Source of the DNA: Xanthobacteraceae bacterium
Lineage (GTDB): Bacteria > Pseudomonadota > Alphaproteobacteria > Rhizobiales > Xanthobacteraceae
Assembly (NCBI GenBank): GCA_031291475.1
Contig: JARLIY010000160.1
Coordinates: 1 to 64,000, forward strand
Length of the DNA: 64,000 nucleotides
Direction of reading: 5' to 3'
Shown here: piece after piece, positions 162-23,718 of the stretch
Layout: every line of letters begins with the position of its first letter
Numbering within the stretch: the first letter of the stretch is position 1
Notes under the pieces: generated by a model
Told to the model about the DNA's origin: nothing
Seen by the model: the letters and a program-made list of their open reading frames with translations, nothing else
Databases searched by the model: none
Position numbers and translations under genes: made by a program

Positions 162-1001
162 ATGCGCCGTCAACCGATCATTCGCGCGTTCTTTGACGAA
201 CCGACCAACACCGTGAGCTATATCGTCGCCGACCCCGCCAGCAGACAGGCGGCGGTGATCGATCCGGTGCTCGACTATGACCGCAACTCCGGTCAGGTCG
301 ACACCCGCTCAGTGGATGCGATATTGCACGTCCCCCAAGAGCAGGGCTATACGGTCGTATGGACGCTGGAAACGCATGCCCATGCCGACCAACTGTCCGG
401 CTCGCCTTACATCAAGGCCAAGACCGGGGCGAAAATCGGCATCGGCGAACACATCAAGGACGTGCAACGCATCTTCCGGCCGGTCTTTGACGCCATCGAT
501 CTGAAGACCGACGGCAGCGACTTTGATCATCTGTTCACGGACGGCGAGCGCTTCAACATCGGCGAACTCGACGCCGAGGTCATCTACACGCCCGGTCACA
601 CGCCGGCGGACATCACTTATAAGATCGAGGACGCGGCCTTCGTGGGCGACACCTTGTTCATGCCCGACTACGGTACGGCTCGCGCCGATTTTCCCGGCGG
701 CGACGCCCACCGGCTCTATCGTTCGATCAGGAAATTGATGGAGCTGCCGCCCGAGACCCGACTGTTCATGTGCCACGACTACAAGGCGCCCGGCCGCGAT
801 ACCTACGCTTGGGAGACCACGGTACGCCAAGAACGCGAGCGCAACGTGCAGATCAAGGAGGGCGTGAGCGAAGACGCGTTCGTCGCTATGCGCAATGCAC
901 GCGATGCCACACTCTCCGCCCCGCGGCTCCTGCTGCCGTCAATCCAAGTTAATATCCGCGCCGGGAAATTCCCGCCGGCTCACGCCAACGGCGTGCGCTA
1001 A
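162..1001 (+). CDS. Persulfide dioxygenase (ETHE1/Blh-like metallo-beta-lactamase fold)
   Basis: This 279-residue protein has the metallo-beta-lactamase fold of the ETHE1/Blh family, which oxidises glutathione persulfide to sulfite with a mononuclear iron. The metal motif appears as THAHADQLS, followed by YTPGHTPAD and CHDY in the expected order. The last His of the usual HxHxDH motif is Gln here. In ETHE1 that position is not one of the iron ligands, so activity may be kept. A start with AGGAGAG at 149-155 is well supported. It is the first gene of an operon with an ArsR repressor, rhodanese, TauE and thioredoxin, the same grouping as bigR operons. The C terminus is a few residues shorter than usual. 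Confidence 0.88.
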   Translation: MRRQPIIRAFFDEPTNTVSYIVADPASRQAAVIDPVLDYDRNSGQVDTRSVDAILHVPQEQGYTVVWTLETHAHADQLSGSPYIKAKTGAKIGIGEHIKDVQRIFRPVFDAIDLKTDGSDFDHLFTDGERFNIGELDAEVIYTPGHTPADITYKIEDAAFVGDTLFMPDYGTARADFPGGDAHRLYRSIRKLMELPPETRLFMCHDYKAPGRDTYAWETTVRQERERNVQIKEGVSEDAFVAMRNARDATLSAPRLLLPSIQVNIRAGKFPPAHANGVR

Positions 1002-1082
1002 TCTCACCATCCCGGTAAAGTTCAAGAACGCGGAAGCGGTGCATTGAGATAGTCGCGGTTGCCCAAACTTACGGAGGCGCAT

Positions 1083-1421
1083 TTGTCTTTGCAGCTAAAC
1101 GACGCCAGGAAGCTGGAGGCGAAGGCCCATGAGGCGGCCACGCTGCTTACTGCGCTCGCCAATGAGCGCCGGCTGGCGATCTTATGCGTGCTGGTCGGGG
1201 GCGAGCGGTCGGTCGGCGAACTGGTCAAAGCCAAAGCCGTCGGTCTGACCCAGTCCGCTCTTTCTCAGCATCTCGCCAAGCTGCGCGCCGCCGGCATCGT
1301 CGCCACGCGGCGCGACGCGCAGACGATCTATTACCGGCTCGCGAGCGCGGCGGCCGGCAGCGTTATGACAACGCTGGCCGAGATTTATTGCCGGCGTCAG
1401 CCGCGCAAATCCCCGCACTAA
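1083..1421 (+). CDS. bigR: ArsR-family persulfide-responsive repressor, BigR/SqrR type
   Basis: This is a winged-helix ArsR repressor of 112 residues. I place the start at TTG 1083 because GGAGG at 1073-1077 sits five bases upstream; an upstream TTG at 1059 has no ribosome site. The recognition helix region reads TQSALSQHLAKLR. Cys35 (in LAILC) and Cys103 (in EIYC) match the two cysteines that form a disulfide or polysulfide bridge in BigR, SqrR and YgaV, with similar spacing. By family knowledge it represses persulfide-detoxification genes until reactive sulfur releases it. Autoregulation through the operator at 99-114 is inference. Confidence 0.85.
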   Translation: MSLQLNDARKLEAKAHEAATLLTALANERRLAILCVLVGGERSVGELVKAKAVGLTQSALSQHLAKLRAAGIVATRRDAQTIYYRLASAAAGSVMTTLAEIYCRRQPRKSPH

Positions 1422-1436
1422 ATCTGGAGAAGACCA

Positions 1437-1802
1437 ATGCAGATCAAATCAATCGACGCCCTGTCGTTGAAGAAGCGCCTCGACAAGGGCGATGCCGTGC
1501 TCATCGATGTTCGCGAAGCGCATGAACATGCGCGCGAGCACATTGAGGGCGCGCGGCTCGCATCATTGTCGCGATTCCAAACCGAGGATTTCAGCGAACA
1601 CCGTGAAAAGACGGCTGTGTTCTATTGCCACAGCGGCGGGCGGACTGGCTCGAACGCTCGGCTGCTGGCATCCAAGGGCTTCCGCGACGCCTATCACCTG
1701 AATGGTGGCATCATGGCTTGGAAAGCGGCCGGCTTGCCGACCCACTCCAAGCGAGACGCGTCGAGCGAGGGCGGACGCAAGCGCTTCGGCTGGCTGTTCT
1801 AA
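1437..1802 (+). CDS. Single-domain rhodanese
   Basis: This 121-residue rhodanese-fold sulfurtransferase has the active loop CHSGGRT with catalytic Cys64. The CH1-like segment IDVREAHEHAREHIEGA lies near the N terminus. Single-domain rhodaneses carry persulfide sulfur between thiols; next to a persulfide dioxygenase it probably moves sulfane sulfur between glutathione or protein thiols in the cytoplasm. GGAG at 1426-1429 precedes the ATG. The gene follows the ArsR stop by 15 bases, so the two are probably co-transcribed. About 18 C-terminal residues after the fold are basic and of unknown role. Confidence 0.9.
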   Translation: MQIKSIDALSLKKRLDKGDAVLIDVREAHEHAREHIEGARLASLSRFQTEDFSEHREKTAVFYCHSGGRTGSNARLLASKGFRDAYHLNGGIMAWKAAGLPTHSKRDASSEGGRKRFGWLF

Positions 1803-1830
1803 CCGCGCGCCGAGACGCGGAAGCGCCGCC

Positions 1831-2628
1831 ATGGTTCTTTCCTGGACACAGGATGCGCTGGCGGTGCTCAGCGGCGGCGCGGTAGGATTCTCGCTCGGTC
1901 TGATCGGCGGCGGCGGATCGATTCTCGCCGTGCCGCTCCTGCTCTACGTCGTTGGCGTGGGCGATGTACACGTCGCCATCGGCACCAGCGCGCTCGCCGT
2001 CGCTGCAAATGCTTTCGCCAATCTGCATGGCCACTGGCGCGCCGGCAATGTTAAATGGTCCTGCGCCGCGACCTTTGCGGTTGCCGGCATTATCGGCGCC
2101 GCGATCGGTTCCTCGGCCGGAAAGGTGGTCGACGGCCAAAAGCTCTTGTTCCTGTTCGCGCTCGCCATGATCGTTGTCGGTGCGGCGATGCTGCGGCCCC
2201 GTGCCGGCGCCGGTAATCCAGACGTTCGCATGACGCCCATGATTGCCGCGCGCCTCGCCGCGATCGGAGTCTTGGTCGGCGCGGTCTCGGGCTTTTTCGG
2301 CATCGGCGGCGGCTTTTTGATCGTACCCGGCCTCATGCTCGGCAGCGGCATGCCGATCCTGAACGCAATAGGCTCGTCGCTGTTTTCGGTCGGCAGCTTT
2401 GGCCTGACCACCGCCATAAACTATGCGCTTTCGGGCTTGATCGAGTGGACGATCGCGCTTTTGTTCATCCTCGGAGGATTGGCCGGCGGCTTCCTCGGTA
2501 TGCGGTTAGCAATTCGCTTGGCCGCCGAACGGCGTATGCTGACCTTTGTCTTTGTGGGAATTATCTTTGCCGTCGCCATCTACATGTTGGCGCGCACCGG
2601 TCTTCCTCCTTGGCTGTCCATTCACTGA
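1831..2628 (+). CDS. TauE/SafE-family sulfite or sulfur-anion exporter
   Basis: This 265-residue polytopic membrane protein has the two-fold repeat of the TauE/SafE family: a glycine-rich segment (GLIGGGGSILAVPLLLY) near the N terminus is echoed by FFGIGGGFLIVPGLML in the second half, and about eight hydrophobic segments are visible. Family members export sulfite, sulfoacetate or related anions. Beside a persulfide dioxygenase, whose product is sulfite, export of sulfite across the inner membrane is the likely role. ATG 1831 is preferred because an upstream in-frame start lies inside the rhodanese gene. The ribosome site is weak. Confidence 0.85.
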   Translation: MVLSWTQDALAVLSGGAVGFSLGLIGGGGSILAVPLLLYVVGVGDVHVAIGTSALAVAANAFANLHGHWRAGNVKWSCAATFAVAGIIGAAIGSSAGKVVDGQKLLFLFALAMIVVGAAMLRPRAGAGNPDVRMTPMIAARLAAIGVLVGAVSGFFGIGGGFLIVPGLMLGSGMPILNAIGSSLFSVGSFGLTTAINYALSGLIEWTIALLFILGGLAGGFLGMRLAIRLAAERRMLTFVFVGIIFAVAIYMLARTGLPPWLSIH

Positions 2629-3146: not shown

Positions 3147-4817
3147 TCACCCGTGCGGAAGACCATGCGGCGTAGTCGGGGCCTTGTCCAAATCGCCGCC
3201 GGCGAGCACGGCATCTTGGCTGAAGACTTCGGGCGGCAGGTCGAGCGCGACCTCGCGACCGTCGCGTCTTGGCGCGATGACCGGATGCGCTATAAAATAT
3301 TCTTCCAAAGCTTCATGTATAGACATTGGGAGAACCTGCGTGTCATGCGTGCCCCGATGTCGACAGATCACATCCAGGGGCTCACCCTCGCGTTCGCACC
3401 CTGCAATGGTATAGCGTCCCTCATCTTCGGCCTCGCGGCCGTTGATTTTTATCGACACGATCCTTTGTCCGAATCCAGCCAGCGCATCGAAGACGATCGT
3501 CATTCCGGAAGCGCGTGGGCCCCATCCGCCATTAAGCTTCAGTGGGCTTTTCGAGTACACCATCTCCAGTTCACGTTCCAAATAGCCTCTGAGTTCCTTG
3601 CCGGTTATCCAGCCGCGCTTCATGCGCGCATCCATCGGCAGCAGGTTCCACAGGTCGGCTTCGGTGATCACTTTAGGCGGAACCGGCACCCCGAAGCGAA
3701 AGCCGTTGGTGAAGCCGATGTCGGCTTTCGCGGTTTCGCGTACCGCGTCGGCGATGAAATCATCAGCCGTGGTTTCTAATAGGTCATAGCGCATCAAGAC
3801 AGTTTCGGTTCTTCCTGCTTGCTTGGTCATGCGAGCCCGATACTCCGCCAATGACTTGTCGACCAGCGCTTTAACGTGCGCGTTTTCGTCATAGCGGCTC
3901 GCCAAGATCGGAATGAGCCGGAAGTCATGGCTCGCGACACCGCCGCCCGGTTTGATGACAAGATCAAGGCGGCCCAAAAACGAACCGAAGCAGCCCGGCT
4001 CGACGACAATGACATTGCCTTCAAGGATCGGCCAGGCTGTCCGCTCATGGGTGTGGCCGGAGAGAACCACGTCGAATTCCGGCGTCTCGCGGGCGATTTC
4101 GCGGGCAATCGATAGGCCGGTGTGGGTCAGAGCCACCACGAGATCAGGCCGCTCGCCAACGCGTAACTCTTTGACGAAATCGCGCAAACCCTCGATGCGC
4201 GTTGTATCCATCCCTCTGAATTCCGCAGGTGGCTGACGTCCGCTCGCGCCGATGTCGGTCATGCCCACGACTGCTATCTTCACGCCTTGCCGCTCAAGGA
4301 TGATCGAAGCGGGGAATAATCGGTTGCCGCTCGCCGTGTCGTGGAAATTGTAGCAAACGACTGGGCAGCCGAGCTGCGCCATGGTGCGCTTGAACCGCTC
4401 GGGGCCATAGGCGGGCTCCCAATTGCCGGGGGTGAAGACATCGATGCCGAGCGCCTTGAGCGGCTCGAGGATCACTTCTCCCTCGGACCAAGCGGCAGGA
4501 CCCGACCCCTGGAACTCGTCACCGCCGTCAAGCAAAAAGCAAGGTCCATCACAATGCGCTCGTTCGTGTTCGATCGCGGTCTTGAGGCGTGCATAACCGC
4601 CCATCATCTGGATTTCCGGCGTCGCCCCTGGCAGATATTCAGGATGGGTTTCGAGTTGTGCATGCGTGTCGGTGAAGTGCAAAAGCGTCAGCCGTTTGCC
4701 TTCTCTTATTCGATCGTTTGGCGCGGGTGCCGCAGCCAGATTGGGAGTTGAGACCGCTCCACCGATCGCCGATAGAGCGGTGGATGCGATGACCTCTCTG
4801 CGCGTCCAAAATTTCAT
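3147..4817 (-). CDS. SoxB-like exported metallophosphoesterase / 5'-nucleotidase family protein
   Basis: This 556-residue protein begins with a twin-arginine leader (TRREVIAS, Arg6-Arg7), so export in folded form is likely. The metallophosphoesterase motifs are DTHAQ (Asp50, His52), GGDEFQGS, GNWEPAYG (131-138), THTG (His232) and SGHTHE (254-258); a 5'-nucleotidase C-terminal domain follows. Ordinary 5'-nucleotidases have GNHE and thiosulfohydrolase SoxB has GHWE, so GNWE is intermediate. SoxB releases sulfate from SoxY-bound sulfane-sulfonate, but no soxYZ, soxXA or soxCD is visible in the window. ATG 4817 overlaps the cytochrome stop (TGATG), implying translational coupling. The exact substrate is unknown. 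Confidence 0.7.
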   Translation of the reverse strand: MKFWTRREVIASTALSAIGGAVSTPNLAAAPAPNDRIREGKRLTLLHFTDTHAQLETHPEYLPGATPEIQMMGGYARLKTAIEHERAHCDGPCFLLDGGDEFQGSGPAAWSEGEVILEPLKALGIDVFTPGNWEPAYGPERFKRTMAQLGCPVVCYNFHDTASGNRLFPASIILERQGVKIAVVGMTDIGASGRQPPAEFRGMDTTRIEGLRDFVKELRVGERPDLVVALTHTGLSIAREIARETPEFDVVLSGHTHERTAWPILEGNVIVVEPGCFGSFLGRLDLVIKPGGGVASHDFRLIPILASRYDENAHVKALVDKSLAEYRARMTKQAGRTETVLMRYDLLETTADDFIADAVRETAKADIGFTNGFRFGVPVPPKVITEADLWNLLPMDARMKRGWITGKELRGYLERELEMVYSKSPLKLNGGWGPRASGMTIVFDALAGFGQRIVSIKINGREAEDEGRYTIAGCEREGEPLDVICRHRGTHDTQVLPMSIHEALEEYFIAHPVIAPRRDGREVALDLPPEVFSQDAVLAGGDLDKAPTTPHGLPHG

Positions 4818-6904
4818 CAATATCGCGCATCCTTAGGTTTGCCGCCGTTGGGCCAGTCTTTGACCTTCGGCATAAAATCGGGACGCGGTTGATGGGTGAA
4901 GTATTCCGCCACGTCCACCGCATCCTGATCCGATAGGGCGCCGCCCTGGCCTAGCGGCGTGTTCAGCCCGTAAGCAATCGGCATATTGTTCTTGATGAAG
5001 GCGGCGGCGGTGTAGGTTCTCGCCATGCCGGCGCCGATATTGAACGACTGATCACCCCAGAGCGGTGGAAAGACGAAGTCGGCGCCGCGCGCATCTTTCA
5101 AGCCCTCGCCGTCCTTTCCGTGGCATTCAGAGCACTTCGATTCATAAATTTCCCTACCGCGAACCGGATCGGGCACGAGATTTGTGTCGACTTTTCCGAT
5201 GCCAGCCCCCTCGACTTTGGCGTTTCGCGGCAGCCCGGCGGACAGCCAGTTGAAGTACGCGATCATGGCTTTCATTTCGGGAGAGTCGATAGACAGTGCC
5301 TTGCCATTCATTGACCGCAGCAAGCATCCGTTGACGCGTTCCTCTAATGTCACCCGGCGTCCGGCGCGTGGATTATCTCGCGGGTAATTGACCGACATGC
5401 CGAGGTAAGGCGAGGCAAGAGCCACGTTTCCGCCGTTTAAATGGCAACTGTCGCAGTTCAGCGCAGCACCGACATTGTCCGGTAGTGATTTCTTGGTATC
5501 GACCAACAGACGTCTACCCAGCAAGATTTGTTTGCCGTTGTCGTTATCTGGAATGTCGGCCATGTGCGGCGGGGCCAATTTGATCGCGTCCGGTTGCGCG
5601 CCCGATGGCGGCTTTGCTTGGGTCGTTGTTTCCGCCGGAGCGGGCGAGAGTTCTGCTTCGCTAACGATTGCTCGGAGCTTGGCAACCTGTTCAGTAGTAA
5701 TGGCGCTGGCGGTATTGCCCCAGGCAGTTCGAATATAAGTGACGATCTCAGCTATCTTACGGTCGTCCAGCTTCGTGAAAGCGGGCATGGCGAATGCGTT
5801 GGGGCGCGTCGTCGTCCGCGGCCTTCTCCCGCCGCTCAAAATGATGTGAACAAGCGAGGTCGCGTTGGCCGTTTCAACCACGTCATTACCCGCTAATGCT
5901 GGGAAGATCCCCGCGACGCCTTGGCCATCCGCGCGGTGACAAGCTAGACAAAGTTCTCCGTACTCGGCCTTCGCGAGACTTGCGCGCCCGCCGTCCGCGG
6001 ACGTCACCGCCGGGCGCCCTGTAGCAACAGACGGTTCGGCTTTGCCCGCCGGAAGCGATTTCAGATAATGGGCAATGGCCGTGAGGTCATCAGCGGTAAG
6101 ATACTGGGTGCTGTGCTGTACCACCTCGGCCATGTCACCGAATGCAGCAGTGTGGTCAGTGCTGCCGCTCATGAGAAAGGTGACGATGTCGGCTTCGCTC
6201 CACTTACCGAGCCCGTCCGTCTCGCCGCGCAGAGTCTTGGCGTACCAGCCGTTTACAACTGCTCCCGCCAAAAAGTCTGGGCCATCGCGTTCGGTCAGAG
6301 CCTTTTCGTGAAGAGTGAAAGTGCGCGGCGAGTGGCAGGTTCCACAATGCCCAAGACCTTGCACCAGATAGGCGCCCCGATTCCATTGTGCGTCCCGGGT
6401 GGGATCGGACCGAAACGGTCCGCGGCGAAGCAACGCGTCCCAAAAGAACAACGGAAAGCGGAAGTTCAGCAGAAATGGAATGTCACTCGGTCGATTGGCC
6501 TGTTTGACGGGCGCGACGCCACGCTGGAAATAAGCGTAGAGAGTCTGCATGTCGGCGTCAGTGACCTTGGCGTAGGATGGGAAGGGCATGGCCGGATAGA
6601 GATAACGGCCGCCCTTACCCACACCCTCACGCACCGCGCGGGAAAAGTCGTCGAGGCTATAAGAACCAATCCCGGTTTCCCGGTCTGGCGTAATGTTGGT
6701 CGTGTAAATCCGTCCGAGCGGCGTCGGCAAGGCAAGCCCCCCGGCGAATTCCGCGCCGCCGGGAGCCGTATGGCATGCGACACAGTCCGCAGCCCGCGCC
6801 AAATACTGGCCGCGTTCCACAACCGAATCGGTCGAGCCTGGCTCGGCCTGCGCAGCCGTCGCTACAAATACGATAGAAACGCACAGCCACAGCAGGTTGC
6901 CCAT
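4817..6904 (-). CDS. Five-heme cytochrome c: AdhB-like triheme domain fused to TsdA-like diheme domain
   Basis: This 695-residue protein has a signal peptide (about 1-20, ending AQA). Five CxxCH heme sites are visible at 41-45, 187-191, 319-323, 484-488 and 591-595. Residues 28-400 resemble the triheme subunit of quinohaemoprotein alcohol dehydrogenase (YTTNITPD, AMPFPSYAKV). Residues about 450-690 resemble thiosulfate dehydrogenase TsdA: CDSCH followed by YLGMSVNYPRDNPRAG, and Cys527 in RVNGC at the place of the TsdA heme thiolate ligand. TsdA joins two thiosulfates into tetrathionate; the triheme part may pass electrons to quinone or another cytochrome (inference). It lies between a binding-protein gene and the SoxB-like gene in one operon. 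Confidence 0.85.
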   Translation of the reverse strand: MGNLLWLCVSIVFVATAAQAEPGSTDSVVERGQYLARAADCVACHTAPGGAEFAGGLALPTPLGRIYTTNITPDRETGIGSYSLDDFSRAVREGVGKGGRYLYPAMPFPSYAKVTDADMQTLYAYFQRGVAPVKQANRPSDIPFLLNFRFPLFFWDALLRRGPFRSDPTRDAQWNRGAYLVQGLGHCGTCHSPRTFTLHEKALTERDGPDFLAGAVVNGWYAKTLRGETDGLGKWSEADIVTFLMSGSTDHTAAFGDMAEVVQHSTQYLTADDLTAIAHYLKSLPAGKAEPSVATGRPAVTSADGGRASLAKAEYGELCLACHRADGQGVAGIFPALAGNDVVETANATSLVHIILSGGRRPRTTTRPNAFAMPAFTKLDDRKIAEIVTYIRTAWGNTASAITTEQVAKLRAIVSEAELSPAPAETTTQAKPPSGAQPDAIKLAPPHMADIPDNDNGKQILLGRRLLVDTKKSLPDNVGAALNCDSCHLNGGNVALASPYLGMSVNYPRDNPRAGRRVTLEERVNGCLLRSMNGKALSIDSPEMKAMIAYFNWLSAGLPRNAKVEGAGIGKVDTNLVPDPVRGREIYESKCSECHGKDGEGLKDARGADFVFPPLWGDQSFNIGAGMARTYTAAAFIKNNMPIAYGLNTPLGQGGALSDQDAVDVAEYFTHQPRPDFMPKVKDWPNGGKPKDARY

Positions 6905-6944
6905 CAGCGATTTCGCCTTCGTATCAAACTTCGGTCGGCGCGGA

Positions 6945-7952
6945 TCATGGGTTGTAAGGTTTGAATCCGTAGCGCTCGAATATTTTCAGCGCTTCAGGCG
7001 AGTGAATGAATTCAAGCCATTCCTTTGCTGCCTGCGGATGCGGCGCGCCTTTCACCTCAGCGCCCGCATAGATTGCCGTGACGTTGACATTGTCGGGGAT
7101 GGTGACGTGCTCGATCGGATTGCCTACCTGTTCCTGGAAGCTCGCCTCGGATTGCCAGGTCACACCCGCATCGGCGCAGCCCTGCATGATCGACAACGGC
7201 GTCTGCCGGTGATGGATCATGGTCAGGTAGGTGCTGCCGTCCTTGACTTTGGTCTCGTAAACCATCGTCGCCAAGGTCTCGCCGCCGGCATTGACCAGCG
7301 CAGCCTTGATCTGACGGCCAATTCCTTCGTAGGCTGGATTAGGCATCGCTAACCGGATGTCCGGTCTGCCCAGATCGGCCAAACCGGTGACGTGAGACGG
7401 GTTGCCCTTGGCTACCATGATGGCGAGATTGTTCGTGACGTAGGGCACCACGGGTCCGGTCAGAATGCCCTTGTCGATGCTTTCCTTCACCTTTCTTAAG
7501 CCGCCAAAATAAACGTCGGCCTTCGCCGTCCACGTCATGTTGCCGACGGTGATACGACCGCCCTTTTCGATCTGTTCGATCAATCGTCCCGGAGGGATCG
7601 TCTCCCAGAAAATCCGGCCTTTAAACTCCGGATGGGCGGCCTCGAATGCCAGCACCAGGTCCTTCGTCGCAAAGTAGTAATTGCCGCCGAAGAACAGAAC
7701 CAGCTTGGGATCGGTCAAATCACCATGGAAATCAGCGAGCACGTCGATTTCCGGAACCGTGAACAGCAGGCCCCTGTCGGTAACGTCGTTGTTAGTTCCG
7801 CCTTGCCATGGCGGCAATGTGTGTTCGTCAAAGCGCGGCGGTTGTTTGCACAATGACGCCACCTTGCCCGCCGGTTCTTCGGCCGAAGCGGATCCGGCCA
7901 ATAGGATGCCGGCGATACAGCCGAACATGAATCGCCGCGTCATGGCGCGCAT
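6945..7952 (-). CDS. Exported substrate-binding protein, ModA-like (type II periplasmic binding fold)
   Basis: This protein has 335 residues counting from the ATG preceded by AGGGAGA; a GTG 24 bases upstream lacks a ribosome site. The leader MRAMTRRFMFG to about residue 24 (GSASA) is a signal peptide, possibly Tat-type because of its paired arginines. The mature part resembles molybdate/sulfate-type binding proteins (ALVNAGGE, a C-terminal AKEWLEFIHSPEA helix). No ABC permease or ATPase gene is nearby, so it may work as a ligand carrier or accessory protein for the exported redox enzymes rather than in uptake (inference). It is the second gene of the minus-strand operon. Confidence 0.65.
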   Translation of the reverse strand: MRAMTRRFMFGCIAGILLAGSASAEEPAGKVASLCKQPPRFDEHTLPPWQGGTNNDVTDRGLLFTVPEIDVLADFHGDLTDPKLVLFFGGNYYFATKDLVLAFEAAHPEFKGRIFWETIPPGRLIEQIEKGGRITVGNMTWTAKADVYFGGLRKVKESIDKGILTGPVVPYVTNNLAIMVAKGNPSHVTGLADLGRPDIRLAMPNPAYEGIGRQIKAALVNAGGETLATMVYETKVKDGSTYLTMIHHRQTPLSIMQGCADAGVTWQSEASFQEQVGNPIEHVTIPDNVNVTAIYAGAEVKGAPHPQAAKEWLEFIHSPEALKIFERYGFKPYNP

Positions 7953-7986
7953 CAATCTCTCCCTCTTGAACGTCACGACTGGACGA

Positions 7987-8754
7987 TCAGCGGGCGTAAT
8001 GGAAGCCCGCCTGCTGCATCACCGGCAGCGTCGCAACCACCCCGGGGGTCAGCACGACGTCCGAGATCAAATGATTGGTCAATTCGGCGGTCAGCTGTTC
8101 GAACGACAGATGGTCGGGATTGGCATTCTTCTTGATCAGCTTGTCGGCCAGTTCCGCGATCGCGTTATGGCAGGCGAGAAACACCACGCCGCGCCGCATC
8201 AACGTCGGGATCGCGTTGTCTGCCGATGAAAACACGCCTTCCGGATCCTCGAAGTTCGCCGGATCGTTCGAAGCAAGCTTTGGCTCTTCGATCAGCGTGT
8301 TAGTCTTGAACTTATCGCCGGCAAAGCTTGTTAGCTGATATTTGTCCCACATGGCCTGATCGTAGAGCGCCAAGTGGGCTGTACCGTGCGTACCCGAGAC
8401 GCAGAGAAAGTCCTGGTTCCTGTATGACCAGATTTGCGTATTCAGCGAGTTGCGCATGAGATTGAGCCAAAGACCGCCGATCTCAGTATGATCCCACAGT
8501 TGCTTTGGGCCGGCGGTGTAGCCGACGACCTGCGATAGCGCCTCATGGTCCCATTGGTCGGGGTTGGTCAGGATCATCGGAACGGACTTGAAGTCTCTTC
8601 GCCGCGGAGTTTTGCGCAAACCCTCAGCCAGAGCTTTTAGAGCTCCGGCCCCTGCGGGAGCAAGGTCCGTCGTCACGGCCGCCTGTGCCGTTCCAGACTG
8701 AGTGGCTGCGACCACGAGCGCGCCGCCCGCGACCATCACGCGACGACTGATCAT
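7987..8754 (-). CDS. Tat-exported DsrE/DsrF-fold-like protein
   Basis: This 255-residue protein has a twin-arginine leader (MISRRVMVAGG, to about residue 25). The C-terminal half resembles periplasmic DsrE-like proteins: VVFLACHNAI with Cys195 sits where these have a conserved cysteine, and TPGVV..LPVMQQAGFHYA matches their C-terminal helix. A second cysteine is Cys118. Possible role: a periplasmic thiol carrier of sulfane sulfur, passing it to or from the pentaheme or SoxB-like protein (inference). A perfect AGGAGG lies six bases before the start. It is the first gene of the four-gene minus-strand operon. The fold call comes from motifs only. Confidence 0.5.
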   Translation of the reverse strand: MISRRVMVAGGALVVAATQSGTAQAAVTTDLAPAGAGALKALAEGLRKTPRRRDFKSVPMILTNPDQWDHEALSQVVGYTAGPKQLWDHTEIGGLWLNLMRNSLNTQIWSYRNQDFLCVSGTHGTAHLALYDQAMWDKYQLTSFAGDKFKTNTLIEEPKLASNDPANFEDPEGVFSSADNAIPTLMRRGVVFLACHNAIAELADKLIKKNANPDHLSFEQLTAELTNHLISDVVLTPGVVATLPVMQQAGFHYAR

Positions 8755-8838: not shown

Positions 8839-9939
8839 TCAGCTTGCGGCCGCAGTTATGCCACGCTGGCGAAGTGCCATCTCAATGACCTGACGAAAAT
8901 CACCGGCGCTCAAGCTGAGAAAATCAGCCGAACTGCGAGCGAAGAAATTTTCGATCGTCCGGCCGGCGTCGGCGACATTTACGCCGCGTAGCGATGCTTC
9001 GAGATCGAATACGAGGCGCGGCGGCGTGACGAAGAAGTCGCCGGTGATCAACGCTTCGCGAATGAGCTCGCGGTGCGGTCCTTCCAGGCGGATATCGGCG
9101 CGTACGGTGCCGCCGCGGCCGGTCAACGATGCGCTGACCAGACCATCGCTGACCGGCGGCGCGTCTAGCATGGTCACATATTCATCCGTGCCGATCTCCT
9201 CGCGAAACGCGCGTTCGGTCAGTTCTTCCTCATAAGGCGTGATCGCTCCCCATTGCGGTGCGATGCCGAGACCCTCGGCAAAGCCCGCGACCAGGCCATC
9301 ATAAATGTCTTCGAGATCGGGTAGAGCATCGCCCATAATTTCACGCATCGTCACCACGCGCTGCGCCGCCGAATCGATTCCGCGTTTGGCAAGCTTCTCC
9401 GCCGGCACGTTGAGGCATGCCAGCATCTTGGCCGGATCGAAATCGATCAACAAAGTGCCCTGATAGAAAATGAGATTGCCGTCGAAAAAACCGCCGGTGC
9501 CGCTGATCTTGCGGCCGTCCACCTCGATATCGTTGCGCGGCCGGTATCGTGCCGGCAGGCCCAATTTTTGCAGACCAAGCGCGGCGGCCTCGCAAATGCG
9601 CCGGGTCACTTCCGCAAGGTCAGTCAATCCCAAAGTGGCGCGATCGAAGACGAGCTCCCAGCCGATCTGACCCTCGTCGAAATAGAGGCCGCCGCCGCCA
9701 GTGATCCGCCGTACCGTCTCGATGCCGTGCGTGCTGCAATAGTCGACCTTGATCTCATGGCTGAGGAACTGATGGATGCCGATCAGCGCGGAGGGGCGAA
9801 AGCGGAGGAAGCGGATGGTGTCGGGAATTTTACCTTCCCGGCGCGCTTCGATGAGTGCTTGATCGAAGGCGATGTTGGCGCGTCCGCCGCGCAATCCGGT
9901 CTCAATCACGCGGAACGGCTTGGCTGGCGACGGGGTCAT
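8839..9939 (-). CDS. slpl: Lipoate-protein ligase of the sHdr-LbpA type, sLpl(AB)
   Basis: This 366-residue single-chain ligase combines an LplA catalytic domain (RRITGGGGLYFDEGQ, then NDIEVDGRKISGTGG with the catalytic-region lysine) and a C-terminal accessory LplB-like domain. By comparison with sulfur oxidisers, sLpl(AB) attaches octanoate or lipoate to the lipoate-binding protein LbpA rather than to dehydrogenase subunits. AAGGA precedes the ATG by about seven bases. It is the last gene of lipS2-lipT-lipS1-slpl, ten bases after lipS1. The lbpA target is on the plus strand at 21012. Confidence 0.85.
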   Translation of the reverse strand: MTPSPAKPFRVIETGLRGGRANIAFDQALIEARREGKIPDTIRFLRFRPSALIGIHQFLSHEIKVDYCSTHGIETVRRITGGGGLYFDEGQIGWELVFDRATLGLTDLAEVTRRICEAAALGLQKLGLPARYRPRNDIEVDGRKISGTGGFFDGNLIFYQGTLLIDFDPAKMLACLNVPAEKLAKRGIDSAAQRVVTMREIMGDALPDLEDIYDGLVAGFAEGLGIAPQWGAITPYEEELTERAFREEIGTDEYVTMLDAPPVSDGLVSASLTGRGGTVRADIRLEGPHRELIREALITGDFFVTPPRLVFDLEASLRGVNVADAGRTIENFFARSSADFLSLSAGDFRQVIEMALRQRGITAAAS

Positions 9940-9949
9940 ATTCGTGTCC

Positions 9950-11239
9950 TTACTTGCTCCTGCTAACAGTCGCTGCGGCGGCGGAAGTACTGCTCATGCC
10001 GGCATCGATCTGACGGCGGGCCTTGCGAATATCATTGCGGTTCAGCCTGAACGGATAGGAAGCGATGTCGCGCGGCGGAGAATCGCCGTACGGCCGATCG
10101 CAAGCCGAAATGTCGTCGGCCTCCTTGCCCGGACAGCCCGAGGTGCGGAAGGCTGTACCGGCATCGATCACGGCGTCGATCTCGTCCTGCGGCAGGCCAA
10201 AATCGATCAACGTGCCATTCGCGTCGAAGCGCATCTGTTCGAGGCGATGGCTGCGATAATCGATGAGGTAGCGCGCGAGCTGAATGCGCCGCCATTGCGG
10301 CCGCGGCACCGGCGGCAGATGATCCATGAGCGAGCCGCGTTCGGGGAAGAACGCGAACATGTGGCTATGGCCGCCAAGGTCGCGAACCGTTTGCACCTGA
10401 GTGAGCACATCACGATCGCTTTCGCCCATGCCAACGATTAGATGCGCGCCAAACCGCTCCGGTCCGAAGATTTCGGCGGCGGCGTGGAGAATTTCCCAAT
10501 ATTTGTCCCAACTGTGCGGCGACTGCACGCCGGAGCCACGCGTGCGGTCAAACACGTCGCGATTACACGCGTCGAGGGCGACCGTGAAGATATCGGCACC
10601 GATGTTTTTCAGCTCCTGCACGTCCAGCCGGGTCATGGTCGTTGGATTGGACAGGATGGACACCGGCACGTGCCGGACGCGCTCGACCCATTTCCTCAGC
10701 ACGATCCTGGTGTCGTCGTCGGAGCGAGGATGGGTAATCATGCTGATGCACATGCGGTGGAACCGGCCGCGATCGCCACCCGCGGCGACGATGTCGATCA
10801 CCTGGTCGTAGGGGACCGCCGGCCAATCAACGCGGATGAAGTTGCGGTCGGCGTAGTTGCGCTCCGCTTCGCGATGCCGCGCTAGTCCACAATAAGCACA
10901 ATTGGCACGACAGCCTTCCGGATAGGTGAGCAGCAGATTCAAGCAACGCGTGCAGCTGGTACGATGCATATATCCGCCCATGAGGCCGAGCGTGATTGCC
11001 GCTGCCGTCGACATTTGCACGTATTCGGGCGAACGCATGTTGGGCGTTAGGAAATTGAAATTCGGCCGGTAAACGCCTTCGGGCTGCACGTCCTGGGTTT
11101 TCACCCGGGCACCGTTGCGCGCGTCGGCTGGCACCACCGCCGGTGCGCGGGGTTGCATCGCTGTGGCATCATTGAACGCACGCTCTGACGCGCCGAGGAA
11201 ATCGGGAACCGGACTTCGGGGCATTTCGAGACAGCTCAT
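9950..11239 (-). CDS. lipS1: Radical SAM lipoyl synthase component LipS1
   Basis: This 429-residue radical SAM protein has the cluster motif CRANCAYC and an extra upstream cysteine pair (CTRC). LipS1 and LipS2 together insert the two sulfur atoms into octanoyl-LbpA, in place of single-chain LipA. I prefer ATG 11239, preceded by AAGGAGG; an adjacent upstream GTG would be too close to that site. The downstream segment VGMGESDRD and the FAFFPERGS region suit the biotin-synthase-like barrel. It sits between lipT and slpl in the lipoate operon. Its assignment as S1 rather than S2 rests on length and gene order. Confidence 0.82.
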   Translation of the reverse strand: MSCLEMPRSPVPDFLGASERAFNDATAMQPRAPAVVPADARNGARVKTQDVQPEGVYRPNFNFLTPNMRSPEYVQMSTAAAITLGLMGGYMHRTSCTRCLNLLLTYPEGCRANCAYCGLARHREAERNYADRNFIRVDWPAVPYDQVIDIVAAGGDRGRFHRMCISMITHPRSDDDTRIVLRKWVERVRHVPVSILSNPTTMTRLDVQELKNIGADIFTVALDACNRDVFDRTRGSGVQSPHSWDKYWEILHAAAEIFGPERFGAHLIVGMGESDRDVLTQVQTVRDLGGHSHMFAFFPERGSLMDHLPPVPRPQWRRIQLARYLIDYRSHRLEQMRFDANGTLIDFGLPQDEIDAVIDAGTAFRTSGCPGKEADDISACDRPYGDSPPRDIASYPFRLNRNDIRKARRQIDAGMSSTSAAAATVSRSK

Positions 11240-11264
11240 CACACCTCCTTCAAGTGCCTGACGT

Positions 11265-12335
11265 TCACGCCGCCCAATAGTGCGGCGAGGCGATCCAGCC
11301 GTCCATCAACGCCTGGGGATTGGGGTGACCGCCGTTCGCGTAGCATGCAAGTACGTCCTGCCGGCGCCGCGCTGCGCGGTTGAGCGCCGCGTCGAAAATG
11401 TCGCCGAGCTCCTCCTCGTAATCTTCGATTGCGCGGGAGCAATCGCCAAGAAAATCTGCGGCTGCACGGCCGGCGAGCGCGCCAGATTGCACGGCCGAGG
11501 CGATGCCGGCTCCGGTTACCGGATTGGTCAGGCCTGCGGCATCGCCTGCTAGCAGCACGGCGGTGCGTCCGAGGCGCGCGATCGATTGCAAACGCCCGCC
11601 GACCGGTATGGAGCCGCCTGTGAGAGCAAACGCCCTGGTGCCAATGCGACGTTCGTCCGCAAGCTTCTCGCAAAGAGCGGCGAGCATCGGCTTGAGCGAT
11701 CTTCGGGCCTCGACGGCGACGCCGAGACCAATATTGGCGACGGCGCCCTTGGGGAACAGCCAACCGTAGCCGCCATAGTAATCGGGGCTCAGGAAAATGT
11801 CGGTGGCGTCGTGCGGTAGGACCAGCGGTACCGTGACCTGCCGCGTATCGACCAGGTCGCGGTTGATCTGTCCGATCGCCATACCGACGCGCGAGTGTGG
11901 GCCGTCGGCGCCAATCAGTATCTGTGGCCGCAGCCGGGCGCCGGACGAGGTTGTTACTGTGCCGTCGACGCCGATGGACATGACGGTCTCGCCGTATCGG
12001 CACTCGGCTCCGTTCCATGCCGCTTCGTGCGCCAGCATGCGGTCAAAAGCGCCGCGATCGATCATGAGGCCGTGAAAATGGTCAGTCACCTCCGGCTGCC
12101 GGGACCCGACGAAGGTCAACATGCGGGTCACTTTCTGCTCGGTCACTGTGGGTACGCGGGGAACGTCGTGCTCGATCACGCTCGGCACGAATTCCGCGCA
12201 TTGCACCGCCACGCCGGCGGTCTTCCGCCGTTCCAGCGCGACGACGCTGAGCCCCGCGGCTGCTGCCGTGGCAGCGGCGCGGCTTCCTGCTGGGCCGAGT
12301 CCCACCACAAGAACGTCCGGAGTTTCGATCAGCAT
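11265..12335 (-). CDS. lipT: FAD-dependent oxidoreductase LipT of the lipoate assembly operon
   Basis: This 356-residue protein is of the geranylgeranyl-reductase-like FAD family: the N-terminal dinucleotide site is GLGPAG followed by ALERR, and a second FAD motif (LLAGDAAGLTNPVTGAGI) lies in the C-terminal half. LipT is encoded with LipS1 and LipS2 and is thought to supply electrons for the synthase reaction. ATG 12335 has GAGGAG upstream. An alternative ATG at 12347 overlaps the lipS2 stop as ATGA. Either way it is tightly coupled to lipS2. Cys50 in VQCAEF is the only prominent cysteine near the FAD site. Confidence 0.82.
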   Translation of the reverse strand: MLIETPDVLVVGLGPAGSRAAATAAAAGLSVVALERRKTAGVAVQCAEFVPSVIEHDVPRVPTVTEQKVTRMLTFVGSRQPEVTDHFHGLMIDRGAFDRMLAHEAAWNGAECRYGETVMSIGVDGTVTTSSGARLRPQILIGADGPHSRVGMAIGQINRDLVDTRQVTVPLVLPHDATDIFLSPDYYGGYGWLFPKGAVANIGLGVAVEARRSLKPMLAALCEKLADERRIGTRAFALTGGSIPVGGRLQSIARLGRTAVLLAGDAAGLTNPVTGAGIASAVQSGALAGRAAADFLGDCSRAIEDYEEELGDIFDAALNRAARRRQDVLACYANGGHPNPQALMDGWIASPHYWAA

Positions 12336-12343
12336 CGTGCTCC

Positions 12344-13375
12344 TCATGCGGCGCAGGCGCGCCGTCCGGCGAGGCCGTCGAGAGAAATCGAGCAGCAGGC
12401 GTGGTTTTGCTCGATCGGGCGGCCGATGGCGCGAGCGAGCGTGACGATTCCCTCGGCCGGATAGGCGATACCGTCGAATCCGGCCATGACGGCATAAGCG
12501 TCAGTCACCATCTTGTGACGTCCCGGCGGGCGAATGCAGCCGAGCTGCACGGGCGCATGGCGGATGCGGTTGCGCGCGGCAACGAAGACCTTGGCCACGT
12601 CGTCGGTCGAGACGGTCGCGAACGGCTTTTCTGCCGGCGCGTAGATCGGCGTAACCACGACCAGCACCAGCGCGGCGACCGGATAACGCGCGACGATGTC
12701 GAGCGCGGCTTCCTCGCCCAATAGACGCCCGTAATGGAGCCCGATCACGATATGCGGCACGACCTCCATCGACGTTGCAGTCAGCGCGGCAAGCGTCGCC
12801 TCGAAGTCGACGACCGGGCGGTCGAGATGATAAACGTCGCGAATCGTCTGCTGCGCCCCGATCACATCGGTCATGGCGACATCGATGCCCGCCGCCTCCA
12901 TCTGTTTGGCCCGACGTTGATCAAGCAATGCCGAGTGTGCGGCAATACGTAGGTGAGGAAAATCGCGCTTGAGCTTCTCGATCGTCGGATAATAGCGCTC
13001 GTAGGGTACCTCGTTACGGCGATTGGAACCGCCTGAAAGGAGGAAGCCGCGCAGATCCTTGAGCAGGACCAAATCCCGCACCTTGCGTTCGAGCTCCGCC
13101 GGGCTCGTTGCCGCGATCATCGGCTCGAGAATTTTCGCCTGGCAATGGTCGCAATTGAGCGCACAGGCCCCGCCGGTAATTGAGAAGGCTGGAAAACTCG
13201 CCTTGCCGCAGCCTTTCAACTCGTCGCTGGCATAGGAACGGAATGTGGGGGTGAAAAACCGTAGCACGCCAAGCGGTTGCTCGCGCGCCGCGACCTCCAA
13301 CGATTCGACAAGCGTCCGGTCGAAAGGCAGTTCGTCGAACGGTTCGATCTCGCGCAATACGTCGAACCAGGTCAT
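12344..13375 (-). CDS. lipS2: Radical SAM lipoyl synthase component LipS2
   Basis: This 343-residue radical SAM protein has the cluster motif CALNCDHC inside ITGGACALNCDHCQAK. It is the partner of LipS1 in sulfur insertion into octanoyl-LbpA. I chose the ATG preceded by GGGGAG. An upstream in-frame GTG (13411) would add 12 residues without a ribosome site. This is the first gene of the lipoate operon and is transcribed divergently from the amidotransferase-like gene, across about 115 bases that should hold both promoters. The assignment to S2 follows gene order in known clusters. Confidence 0.82.
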   Translation of the reverse strand: MTWFDVLREIEPFDELPFDRTLVESLEVAAREQPLGVLRFFTPTFRSYASDELKGCGKASFPAFSITGGACALNCDHCQAKILEPMIAATSPAELERKVRDLVLLKDLRGFLLSGGSNRRNEVPYERYYPTIEKLKRDFPHLRIAAHSALLDQRRAKQMEAAGIDVAMTDVIGAQQTIRDVYHLDRPVVDFEATLAALTATSMEVVPHIVIGLHYGRLLGEEAALDIVARYPVAALVLVVVTPIYAPAEKPFATVSTDDVAKVFVAARNRIRHAPVQLGCIRPPGRHKMVTDAYAVMAGFDGIAYPAEGIVTLARAIGRPIEQNHACCSISLDGLAGRRACAA

Positions 13376-13489
13376 CGTCTCCCCATTTAATTTTCTTCGC
13401 CAGATTATCACATTCAGAAACTTCTATATGTTTTCGGCAAGCGGCGCTAGTGTCTTGCCGCCGCCGGTTCAACGGATCGATGTCCGAGA

Positions 13490-14191: not shown

Positions 14192-14286
14192 CGCCTACCG
14201 CGCGCTCGCGCAAACATTCGATTTTTTCTAATTGACCCTATGGCATTCATTCACGTTTTGGAATATGTGGTTGCTAACTGGCCACA

Positions 14287-14300
14287 TTGACCGAGATCAA
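14287..14300 (+). promoter_or_regulatory. FixK/FNR-type box upstream of dsrE3C-shdr
   Basis: TTGAC-CGAG-ATCAA matches the FNR/FixK consensus TTGA[TC]-N4-[AG]TCAA with both half-sites intact. It lies 48 bases before the dsrE3C start. TATGGT at 14322-14327 could be the -10, which would put the box centre near -41, the usual activating position (inference). Confidence 0.6.
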
Positions 14301-14348
14301 TGGGCGCGGTCGCGCAAGGCGTATGGTTTGTGGGAAGGACGCCCGGAA

Positions 14349-14729
14349 ATGGCGAAAAAGCTGATCATCATCATGGTCAACACCGACCCGCGCAACGGCG
14401 AGGAACTCGGCGCGCCGTTCTTTCAGGCGACGGTCGCCGCGGCGATGGACTACGAGGTAGAGGTGGTTTGCACCGCGACGGCCGGACAGCTCATGAAGAA
14501 GGGTGTCGCCGAAAAGCTGGTCGTCAAGCCCGGCTCGCCAAAGACCGTGTACGACTTCATCAAAGATGCGCACGGTGCTGGCGTGAAATTCTATTGCTGT
14601 TCGCCGAACCTTGACCTCTTCGACATGACTGAAGCGGACCTTATTCCCGAATGTGAAGGTATCGTGGGCGGCGCCAAGGTCATCGAGGAGGTCATGGAAG
14701 ACGATGATGCCAGGGTGCTGACCTACTGA
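14349..14729 (+). CDS. dsrE3C: Sulfur carrier DsrE3C
   Basis: This 126-residue DsrE-fold protein carries adjacent Cys83-Cys84 in FYCCSPNLDL, matching the DsrE3C sulfur carriers encoded just ahead of shdr genes in Hyphomicrobium-like sulfur oxidisers. It is thought to exchange persulfide sulfur with TusA and deliver it toward sHdr in the cytoplasm. GAAGGA at 14334-14339 supports this start over upstream in-frame codons. The stop overlaps the shdrC1 start by one base (TGATG), so the two are translationally coupled. Cys41 is a further cysteine of unknown role. Confidence 0.88.
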   Translation: MAKKLIIIMVNTDPRNGEELGAPFFQATVAAAMDYEVEVVCTATAGQLMKKGVAEKLVVKPGSPKTVYDFIKDAHGAGVKFYCCSPNLDLFDMTEADLIPECEGIVGGAKVIEEVMEDDDARVLTY

Positions 14730-15499
14730 TGAGCGCGAACATAGTCCACACTGCCGAACACAGCGACCTGATCGGCGATCCGGTGTCGTCGACCCCTGTC
14801 GTTCCTTACGAAAAGCTCGAGGAAGTCTTCGACGATATCCGCTCGCACGTTCTGTACGACCATGAACTGCACGGCTGCCTCAACTGCGGCATCTGCACCG
14901 CGACCTGCCCGTCGGCGCACTATTACGATTACTCGCCGCGCGAGATCGTTCAGCTCCTTTGGACGGAGAATCTCGAAGGCATCTACGACGCGATGCAGGA
15001 AAAAATCTGGTCCTGCGCCCAGTGCTACACCTGCGCCGCCCGCTGCCCGTTTCAGAATTCCCCCGGCGGCCTCGTCATGATCATGCGCGAGGTTGCAATC
15101 AAGCACGGCATGCAGTCCGCAAAGGATGTGCTGCGACCGTTCTCGCGCGTGCTGCTCAAGGTGATCTCAACCGGCAATCAGCTCGCGCCCAATATGATCA
15201 CGCGGGACGCGTTCCCGGATTGGGGCCCGAATGTCACCAAGGTCGACGCCCCGCTCAACATCCTGCGCAAAGCCATCCCGGTGCCGACCATGCACACTAT
15301 GGACACGGCTTGGGAGGTGAACCTGAAAACCTCGGTCGAGCTTTACACGATCTGGGAGGCAACCGGCGTGCTCGATCAGTTGGAGATGGTCGACGAGAAC
15401 CTGTTCGACGTCGTCAATGACGTAATGGACGAGAAGCGCGACGAGTACAACGAGTGGCTGGAGGAGCAGAAAAAAGAAGAAGAGGACGCGGATGAGTGA
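14729..15499 (+). CDS. shdrC1: sHdrC1, iron-sulfur subunit
   Basis: This 256-residue protein has two [4Fe-4S] ferredoxin motifs, with ligands Cys50/53/56/60 and Cys96/99/102/106, as in HdrC. It is part of the cytoplasmic sulfur-oxidizing heterodisulfide-reductase-like complex that oxidises protein-bound sulfane sulfur toward sulfite with LbpA as partner. The C terminus is strongly acidic (EEQKKEEEDADE). One-base overlap with dsrE3C and a 38-base gap to shdrB1 place it in the main operon. Confidence 0.92.
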   Translation: MSANIVHTAEHSDLIGDPVSSTPVVPYEKLEEVFDDIRSHVLYDHELHGCLNCGICTATCPSAHYYDYSPREIVQLLWTENLEGIYDAMQEKIWSCAQCYTCAARCPFQNSPGGLVMIMREVAIKHGMQSAKDVLRPFSRVLLKVISTGNQLAPNMITRDAFPDWGPNVTKVDAPLNILRKAIPVPTMHTMDTAWEVNLKTSVELYTIWEATGVLDQLEMVDENLFDVVNDVMDEKRDEYNEWLEEQKKEEEDADE

Positions 15500-15537
15500 G
15501 ATGAGACGGACTCATTCGCCGACCAACGGAGGATGCC

Positions 15538-18841: not shown

Positions 18842-18851
18842 AGGAGCGCCT

Positions 18852-20994: not shown

Positions 20995-21011
20995 CATTTA
21001 AGGAGAGCTAG

Positions 21012-21452: not shown

Positions 21453-21471
21453 GCAGCAGGACAAATCTGCA

Positions 21472-22500: not shown

Positions 22501-22546
22501 GTGGAAAGGCGCGGCTACGGCCGCGAAACGAGAGAGAGATAGTCCA

Positions 22547-23041: not shown

Positions 23042-23056
23042 GGCACGAGCAAACAC

Positions 23057-23284: not shown

Positions 23285-23307
23285 GGCGACCGCGCGCGGA
23301 GGCTTTG

Positions 23308-23706: not shown

Positions 23707-23718
23707 GGCGGAACGACG

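What the first reader, a model, noticed from the sequence alone, without database searches (positions are those of the whole stretch)
3147..8754. Four-gene operon of exported sulfur proteins: DsrE-fold, ModA-like, pentaheme cytochrome and SoxB-like
All four products carry export leaders, two of them clearly Tat-type. The gene set is unlike sox, tsd or dsr operons: a DsrE-fold protein with a Tat leader, a binding protein without a transporter, a TsdA-containing cytochrome and a SoxB-like hydrolase. Together they could form a periplasmic thiosulfate/sulfane pathway that uses a soluble carrier in place of SoxYZ. Head-to-tail spacing and TGATG coupling show one transcription unit beside the sHdr locus. 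I do not know a described system with this composition.
Basis: partly seen in the sequence, partly recalled or inferred. Interest (0 to 1): 0.82.

Follow-up and report, generated by a model that had tools for sequence, protein, structure and literature searches.

The report
Thiosulfate operon beside sHdr genes
Four neighbouring bacterial genes appear to oxidise thiosulfate outside the inner membrane with two unrelated thiosulfate-oxidising enzymes, a binding protein and a SoxB-like hydrolase; the parts are known, but this assembly beside the sHdr pathway, with no sign of the usual SoxYZ carrier, looks like a new variant.

Summary
In detail: four co-directional, tightly packed genes with export leaders lie at 3147-8754 (minus strand), beside lipoate and sHdr genes. 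The interpretation needs correction. The "DsrE-fold" protein passes NCBI's equivalog cut-off for the tetrathionate-forming thiosulfate dehydrogenase TSD (376 bits, cut-off 300); with the binding protein it matches the published tsd-sbp pair of Acidithiobacillus ferrooxidans. The cytochrome is an alcohol-dehydrogenase-type triheme subunit fused to a complete TsdA. The last gene is SoxB-like, but far below SoxB's cut-off and outside the SoxB clade. TsdA plus a SoxB-like hydrolase without SoxYZ is a published pathway (Erythrobacter flavus 21-3). What looks new: two unrelated thiosulfate dehydrogenases in one operon; TsdA cytochrome and DoxD never found together near TSD (36 versus 16 of 63 loci, both in 0); binding protein-TsdA fusions (3 loci); and linkage to sHdr in a draft genome where SoxY, DoxD, canonical SoxB and any further SoxA/TsdA domain were not found. 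Most likely it makes tetrathionate, passes electrons to the respiratory chain, and cleaves tetrathionate so that sulfane sulfur can feed sHdr. Function is inferred, not shown. New variant of a known kind; interest 0.6.

The parts
7987..8754 (-). TSD: Tat-type exported thiosulfate dehydrogenase family protein (255 aa); Cys195 (codon 8170-8172) and His196 are invariant in the alignments
   Evidence: NF052225 376 bits, cut-off 300; alignments A1-A3; model pLDDT 89
6945..7976 (-). Exported type II solute-binding protein (sbp of the tsd-sbp pair); no transporter gene in the operon
   Evidence: PF13531 158.6 bits; modA 42.2 bits, below cut-off 62.5; fold matches PEB3/ModA/SubI
4817..6904 (-). Pentaheme cytochrome: AdhB-type triheme part fused to TsdA
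   Evidence: 8gy2_B E 9.6e-109 over residues 11-413; TsdA 4wqc E 2.9e-58 over 437-683; five CxxCH
4856..5596 (-). TsdA domain with two CxxCH and the putative heme Cys ligand Cys527 (codon 5324-5326, in RVNGCLLRSMNG)
   Evidence: PF21342 match; ligand role recalled
3147..4820 (-). SoxB-like, Tat-type exported metallophosphatase/5'-nucleotidase-family protein; GNWE motif at residues 132-135 of the listed ORF
   Evidence: TIGR04486 255 bits, cut-off 550; SoxB 2wdc E 6.8e-37; motif and tree
4815..4819 (-). TGATG stop/start overlap between cytochrome and SoxB-like
   Evidence: sequence
8839..13411 (-). Upstream same-strand lipoate assembly genes: ligase 8839-9939, LipS2-like 9950-11242, LipT-like 11265-12347, LipS1-like 12344-13411
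   Evidence: ligase and LipS2 (both below the models' cut-offs); LipT and LipS1 named from position and recall
14729..20521 (+). sHdr-type genes; LbpA-, DsrE- and TusA-like ORFs follow to 23949
   Evidence: names recalled; sHdrB2 matches of 68-85% identity in six other genomes
162..2628 (+). Convergent neighbours: persulfide-dioxygenase-like MBL protein, ArsR-type regulator, rhodanese, TauE exporter
   Evidence: ArsR named by eye

Best explanation
A periplasmic thiosulfate-oxidation operon that works through tetrathionate and feeds sHdr without SoxYZ. (1) Thiosulfate is captured by the solute-binding protein, which acts as a subunit or donor for the dehydrogenases, not for a transporter (inferred). 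(2) Two thiosulfates are coupled to tetrathionate by TSD and/or the TsdA domain (family assignment shown, activity here inferred). (3) Electrons leave through the TsdA hemes into the fused AdhB-type triheme part and on to the quinone pool or an oxidase (inferred); this cytochrome takes the place that DoxD has in Acidithiobacillus. (4) The SoxB-like hydrolase removes the terminal sulfonate of tetrathionate as sulfate, leaving sulfane sulfur, as proposed for E. flavus (inferred). (5) The sulfane sulfur reaches the cytoplasm by a route not identified and is passed by TusA/DsrE-type carriers to sHdr-LbpA, which makes sulfite (inferred from the neighbourhood).
For: TSD passes the NCBIfam equivalog cut-off. 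The order tsd-sbp-doxDA is published for A. ferrooxidans, with lower signals on iron than on sulfur (log2 -1.5, -2.2, -2.3; PMC2754497 table); in Acidithiobacillus ferruginosus (L077) relatives at 55 and 53% identity lie in two such TSD-binding protein-DoxD sets. The fused cytochrome holds a full TsdA with both CxxCH and the Cys motif, which is present in 50 of 52 TsdA-type sequences examined, the window and near-identical copies included. Near TSD, TsdA and DoxD exclude each other: 36 and 16 of 63 loci, both in 0, 9.1 expected; still 0 after collapsing to 50 or 37 clusters at 90 or 80% identity. Three single-ORF fusions of binding protein and TsdA. SoxB-like genes of the window's group also lie beside TsdA-type cytochromes in Pontibacter and Runella. 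In this genome SoxY, DoxD, a second SoxB-type match and a second SoxA/TsdA domain were not found. In L037 sHdr, LbpA, DsrE3, TusA, TauE, TSD and the start of the binding protein lie in a row. E. flavus tsdA and soxB mutants (PMC7608252 passages).
Against: No SoxB-like gene was found in the fetched flanks of the two closest relatives (L023, L024; TSD 74% identical), whose genomes have SoxY; only 3 of the 63 loci have a SoxB-like gene at 150 bits or more, 4 at 100 bits. In the unrooted tree two ordinary nucleotidases sit next to canonical SoxB (support 96) while the window protein lies in another group, so descent from a thiosulfohydrolase is not shown. At 70% clustering the clusters mix states and 2 of 10 contain both TsdA and DoxD loci. 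The genome is 95.6% complete with 5.1% contamination, so absences are soft. In Hyphomicrobium denitrificans tetrathionate is a dead end and sHdr is fed by Sox proteins (passages of PMC10332631 and PMC11582611). Tetrathionate hydrolase, SoxZ and SoxT were not searched for. Strong sHdrB2 matches occur in only 7 of 51 TSD genomes.
Confidence: 0.6

Rival explanations
1. A Sox-like carrier cycle without SoxYZ: TSD is not mainly a dehydrogenase but a periplasmic thiol carrier. TsdA (a SoxA relative) conjugates thiosulfate to the invariant Cys195 of TSD, the SoxB-like enzyme releases sulfate, and the Cys persulfide hands sulfane sulfur on.
For: Single invariant Cys195 at the end of a strand before a helix in the model; the leading fold matches include proteins titled DsrE or YchN, though none is significant; TsdA and SoxA share PF21342; [quoted passage not shown] a second, unrelated thiosulfate dehydrogenase near TSD in 36 of 63 loci would be odd if both did the same job.
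Against: TSD was identified as a tetrathionate-forming enzyme (review text); the alignment shows no C-terminal arm like that of SoxY (SoxY feature recalled); 59 or 60 of 63 TSD loci have no SoxB-like match nearby, by threshold; 32 of 51 TSD genomes also have SoxY.
Confidence: 0.17
2. A thiosulfate-to-tetrathionate respiratory side-branch (detoxification or electron supply) in which tetrathionate is excreted; the SoxB-like gene is an accessory 5'-nucleotidase-family enzyme not tied to sulfur, and sHdr is fed from sulfide or organosulfur through SQR-like genes.
For: SoxB-like falls far below the SoxB cut-off and outside the SoxB clade; two SQR-like ORFs at 24022 and 28092 (named by eye); tetrathionate is a dead end in H. 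denitrificans (PMC10332631); the closest loci lack SoxB-like.
Against: Stop/start overlap of SoxB-like with the cytochrome; the His of nucleotidases (GNHE, GNHD) is replaced by Trp (GNWE), as in SoxB (xHWE) (its catalytic role is recalled); SoxB is by far its best NCBIfam model (255 bits, next 80); SoxB-like genes of two tree groups sit beside TsdA-type cytochromes.
Confidence: 0.18
3. Tetrathionate reduction: the TsdA domain runs backwards as a terminal reductase and the module supports anaerobic respiration.
For: TsdA enzymes can be bifunctional (title and start of abstract of PMC5146829 in a listing).
Against: The neighbourhood looks oxidative (sHdr, persulfide-dioxygenase-like and SQR-like genes) and DoxD, named thiosulfate:quinone oxidoreductase, stands in the place of TsdA in other loci.
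Confidence: 0.05

Closest known systems
A. ferrooxidans tsd-sbp-doxDA cluster (AFE_0042-0044)
   Same: TSD followed by the same kind of binding protein; periplasmic thiosulfate oxidation (PMC2754497, PMC6335251; passages). Compared here through the family model and through A. ferruginosus L077, not with AFE_0042 itself
   Different: The partner gene is doxDA, not a TsdA cytochrome; no SoxB-like gene named in the passages seen
Erythrobacter flavus 21-3 TsdA-SoxB pathway (PMC7608252)
   Same: TsdA plus SoxB-like enzymes annotated as metallophosphatase/5'-nucleotidase, proposed to bypass SoxYZ; tetrathionate intermediate
   Different: Sulfur is oxidised by SdoA/SdoB, not sHdr; a TsdB partner is proposed instead of an AdhB-type fusion; TSD and binding protein not mentioned in the passages seen; sequences were not compared
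TsdA/TsdBA thiosulfate dehydrogenases (Allochromatium, Marichromatium)
   Same: Catalytic domain with two CxxCH and the Cys motif; fusion to an electron-accepting cytochrome is a known theme (PDB 5lo9 matched; its identity as TsdBA is recalled)
   Different: Partner is a triheme AdhB-type part; that fusion also occurs elsewhere
Sox plus sHdr system of Hyphomicrobium denitrificans
   Same: sHdr-LbpA with lipS1-lipT-lipS2-sLpl genes (PMC10332631 passages)
   Different: There sHdr is fed by SoxXA, SoxB and SoxYZ (PMC11582611 passages); no SoxY found here

Membership tests
TSD (NF052225) | Score above the curated cut-off of 300 bits | tested here: met
   376.4 bits, residues 8-255 on profile 12-259
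TSD (NF052225) | Tetrathionate-forming activity | not testable with these tools
   -
TSD (NF052225) | Paired with the sbp gene | tested here: met
   Next gene here; adjacent in 59 of 80 loci
TsdA | Two CxxCH and the Cys heme-ligand motif, homology to solved TsdA | tested here: met
   ligand role of the Cys recalled
SoxB | TIGR04486 cut-off of 550 bits | tested here: not met
   255 bits
SoxB | Falls in the clade of canonical SoxB | tested here: not met
   Unrooted 18-sequence tree: with Pontibacter L103a and Runella L104 (support 99), apart from three annotated SoxB
SoxB | Trp in place of the nucleotidase His | tested here: met
   GNWE versus xHWE versus GNHE/GNHD
Sox system | SoxY and SoxA in the genome | tested here: not met
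   No SoxY (same search rings in 18 of 21 genomes); the only PF21342 (SoxA/TsdA) match is this TsdA
ModA molybdate-binding protein | modA cut-off and a neighbouring ABC transporter | tested here: not met
   42.2 bits, cut-off 62.5; no transporter gene in the operon
DsrE family | Sequence match to Pfam DsrE | tested here: not met
   No match (15 homologues at E up to 1)
DsrE family | DsrE/YchN fold | tested here: inconclusive
   No Foldseek match at E 0.001; 2pd2 first (E 0.03, no family in its title), then 3pnx, 3mc3 and 1jx7, titled DsrE or YchN, within the top 23 (E 0.3-1.1)
S4I pathway (DoxDA type) | DoxD present | tested here: not met
   No DoxD in the genome; control rang in 3 of 14
S4I pathway (DoxDA type) | Tetrathionate hydrolase present | not tested
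   -
E. flavus TsdA-SoxB pathway | TsdA and SoxB-like present, SoxY absent | tested here: met
   SoxZ not searched

The most novel reading that the evidence does not exclude
A complete analogue of the Sox cycle built from different parts: TSD, a probably DsrE-fold protein with one invariant cysteine, is the SoxYZ substitute; the TsdA-AdhB cytochrome loads it with thiosulfate (as SoxXA loads SoxY), the SoxB-like hydrolase releases sulfate, and the persulfide on TSD goes to sHdr. The A. ferrooxidans 'thiosulfate dehydrogenase' would then be a carrier whose true partners are TsdA or DoxDA, interchangeable electron exits.
Probability: 0.17. Interest if true: 0.88.

Novelty: new variant of a known kind. 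Interest (0 to 1): 0.6.

Why it matters
It suggests how sHdr bacteria without SoxYZ could oxidise thiosulfate, and it points to the physiological electron partner of the A. [quoted passage not shown] It also gives a role to a binding protein without a transporter, through three natural fusions with TsdA. All of this can be tested with small purified proteins.

Tried and rejected
DsrE sulfurtransferase by sequence: no Pfam DsrE match at E up to 1 in 15 homologues, and no PDB sequence match. ModA or CysP importer: scores below cut-offs and no permease or ATPase in the operon. Canonical SoxB: below cut-off and outside the clade. sHdr/SoxYZ co-occurrence as a definition of the module: not supported (SoxY missing in 4 of 7 sHdr-positive and 15 of 44 other genomes; two weak 35-38% HdrB matches that one search counted in its 9 of 51 were treated as negative). 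Promoter scan: 4 found, 3.5 expected by chance, so uninformative; terminator scan 8 found, 11.7 expected. A first motif search used the wrong spacing and gave 0 of 52; corrected (50 of 52, missing L041 and L064). VIA-align was not available. Kikumoto 2013 itself is not held; its results are cited from the review.

Dropped rows: the exclusion count uses the 63 of 80 loci with at least 5.5 kb downstream; the 80 are the best of 275 relatives, so biased to close ones, and the first P value ignores kinship. The co-occurrence count uses 50 of the 80 loci plus the own genome. L011's SoxB-like (annotated short) was left out of the tree. L085 runs into its contig end and is counted neither as fused nor as split.
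Full report
What is there. On the minus strand four ORFs follow each other: TSD 7987-8754, binding protein 6945-7976, cytochrome 4817-6904, SoxB-like 3147-4820. Spacing is short and the last pair overlaps as TGATG. Upstream on the same strand, 84 bp away, lies the end of the lipoate assembly set (a lipoate-protein ligase, LipS2-like, then LipT- and LipS1-like genes); sHdr-, LbpA-, DsrE- and TusA-type genes lie on the other strand from 14232 to 23949 (several names recalled). No convincing promoter signal separates the blocks.

Identity of the parts. TSD has no Pfam match but passes the NCBIfam equivalog for 'thiosulfate dehydrogenase' (NF052225, 376 bits, cut-off 300). In alignments of 48 and 53 sequences one cysteine, Cys195, is invariant, followed by invariant His196, and the twin-arginine pair is conserved. 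The AlphaFold model is good (pLDDT 89, pTM 0.85); Foldseek gives no match at E 0.001 or better, but 2pd2 (a conserved hypothetical), 3pnx, 3mc3 and 1jx7 (titled DsrE or YchN proteins) stand among the top 23 (E 0.03 to 1.1). The binding protein is a type II solute-binding protein of the PEB3/ModA/sulfate-binding kind. The cytochrome aligns over residues 11-413 with an alcohol dehydrogenase cytochrome subunit (8gy2_B, E 9.6e-109) and over 437-683 with TsdA (4wqc, E 2.9e-58). SoxB-like matches SoxB 2wdc at E 6.8e-37, scores 255 bits against the SoxB cut-off of 550, the next best model reaching 80, and has Trp where nucleotidases have His (GNWE). In an unrooted 18-sequence tree it groups with SoxB-like proteins of Pontibacter and Runella (support 99), apart from three annotated SoxB and from the Bradyrhizobium/Bosea/Novosphingobium group; two ordinary nucleotidases fall next to SoxB, not next to the window protein, so its descent from a thiosulfohydrolase is not shown.

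Genome context. The window lies in a 4.0 Mb draft of 172 contigs, 95.6% complete, 5.1% contamination. It has one TSD, one SoxB-family match, this one, no SoxY, no DoxD and one SoxA/TsdA domain, this one. The SoxY search rings in 18 of 21 and 32 of 51 genomes, so the method works. TSD is uncommon among relatives: 2 of 385 class genomes and 6 of 297 order genomes, own genome included in both counts.

Comparative neighbourhoods. One scan of genome contigs gave 275 relatives, of which 80 were kept. Of these, 59 have the binding-protein gene directly after TSD. In the 63 with at least 5.5 kb downstream, the binding protein is near in 46, a TsdA-type cytochrome in 36, DoxD in 16, both TsdA and DoxD in 0, neither in 11. 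Chance overlap would be about 9 (hypergeometric P 3.6e-8, ignoring kinship); the count stays 0 in 50 clusters at 90% and 37 at 80% identity, while at 70% the 10 clusters mix states and 2 contain both kinds of locus. L087, L096 and L100 encode the binding protein and TsdA as one ORF (606, 633, 615 aa). The five-heme AdhB-TsdA fusion recurs in L041, L063, L064, L072, L086 and L094; in the closest relatives L023 and L024 the two are separate, overlapping genes. Eleven plasmid records also hold a match over at least 80% of the fused protein, among them Cupriavidus metallidurans pMOL30, where the 14 kb fetched hold no TSD match. The four-part set TSD, binding protein, SoxB-like, TsdA cytochrome occurs in L011, L016, L017, L030, L036 and L068, in a different order and with unfused TsdA; the four of these placed on the tree (L017, L030, L036, L068) have a SoxB-like of another group, and several are near-identical copies. 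L037 has sHdr, LbpA, DsrE3, TusA, TauE, TSD and the start of the binding protein in a row. Acidithiobacillus ferruginosus (L077) has two TSD-binding protein-DoxD sets facing each other, like the two-copy cluster described for A. ferrooxidans.

Co-occurrence. Among 51 genomes (own plus those of 50 of the 80 loci) sHdrB2 is found at 68% identity or more in 7, own included; SoxY is missing in 4 of these 7 and in 15 of the other 44.

Literature seen. PMC2754497 (table and passages): AFE_0042 Tat-signal protein, AFE_0043 periplasmic solute-binding protein, AFE_0044 DoxDA, higher on sulfur than on iron. [quoted passage not shown] PMC7608252 and PMC9426585 (passages): TsdA and SoxB-like enzymes of E. 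flavus make sulfate and zero-valent sulfur from thiosulfate through tetrathionate, proposed to bypass SoxYZ. PMC10332631 and PMC11582611 (passages): lipoate genes with sHdr; tetrathionate as dead end; Sox feeding of sHdr. Eight searches listed no paper that, from its listing, describes TSD with TsdA, binding protein and SoxB-like in one operon, the TsdA/DoxD exclusion, or binding protein-TsdA fusions; only open-licence papers were searched and most listed papers were not opened.

Reading. The most economical account is a tetrathionate-type thiosulfate pathway that joins the A. ferrooxidans tsd-sbp core to the E. flavus TsdA-SoxB logic, with an AdhB-type electron exit and sHdr as the cytoplasmic sink. 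Shown: gene identities at family level, order, conservation, exclusion pattern, fusions, and the Sox genes not found in this draft. Inferred: every reaction, the binding protein's role, the electron route and sulfur import. The bolder account, TSD as a SoxYZ-like carrier on Cys195, is not excluded and is directly testable.

Noticed in passing
window 21436-22500; L010, L017, L028, L057, L103: A YeiH/UPF0324-type putative sulfate exporter lies behind LbpA here; distant relatives (26-33% identity) recur near TSD or SoxB-like loci, perhaps the sulfate or sulfite exit.
   Followed up: partly
L010-L021, plasmid records: TSD relatives occur on 24 plasmid records, 7 predicted conjugative, so the module is mobile; Gluconobacter oxydans 621H carries TSD, binding protein and DoxD on a plasmid.
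   Followed up: partly
L105, L106, L107: AdhB-TsdA fusion with no TSD match in the fetched flanks; in Thioclava and Ideonella it is followed by a PhnD-like binding protein and a response regulator, perhaps another way to pair TsdA with a binding protein.
   Followed up: no
window 162-1001: Persulfide-dioxygenase-like protein resembling part of Blh (profile positions 139-414 of 423); 373 bits, cut-off 625. A separate rhodanese gene lies at 1437-1802.
   Followed up: no
L073, L089: SoxB of the canonical clade lies within the fetched flank of TSD in Methylobacterium brachiatum and a Rhodospirillales MAG, hinting at mixing of TSD and Sox modules.
   Followed up: no
L017 and L108 (same Bradyrhizobium betae plasmid): Two SoxB-like plus cytochrome sets on one plasmid, one with TSD and binding protein, one without.
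   Followed up: no
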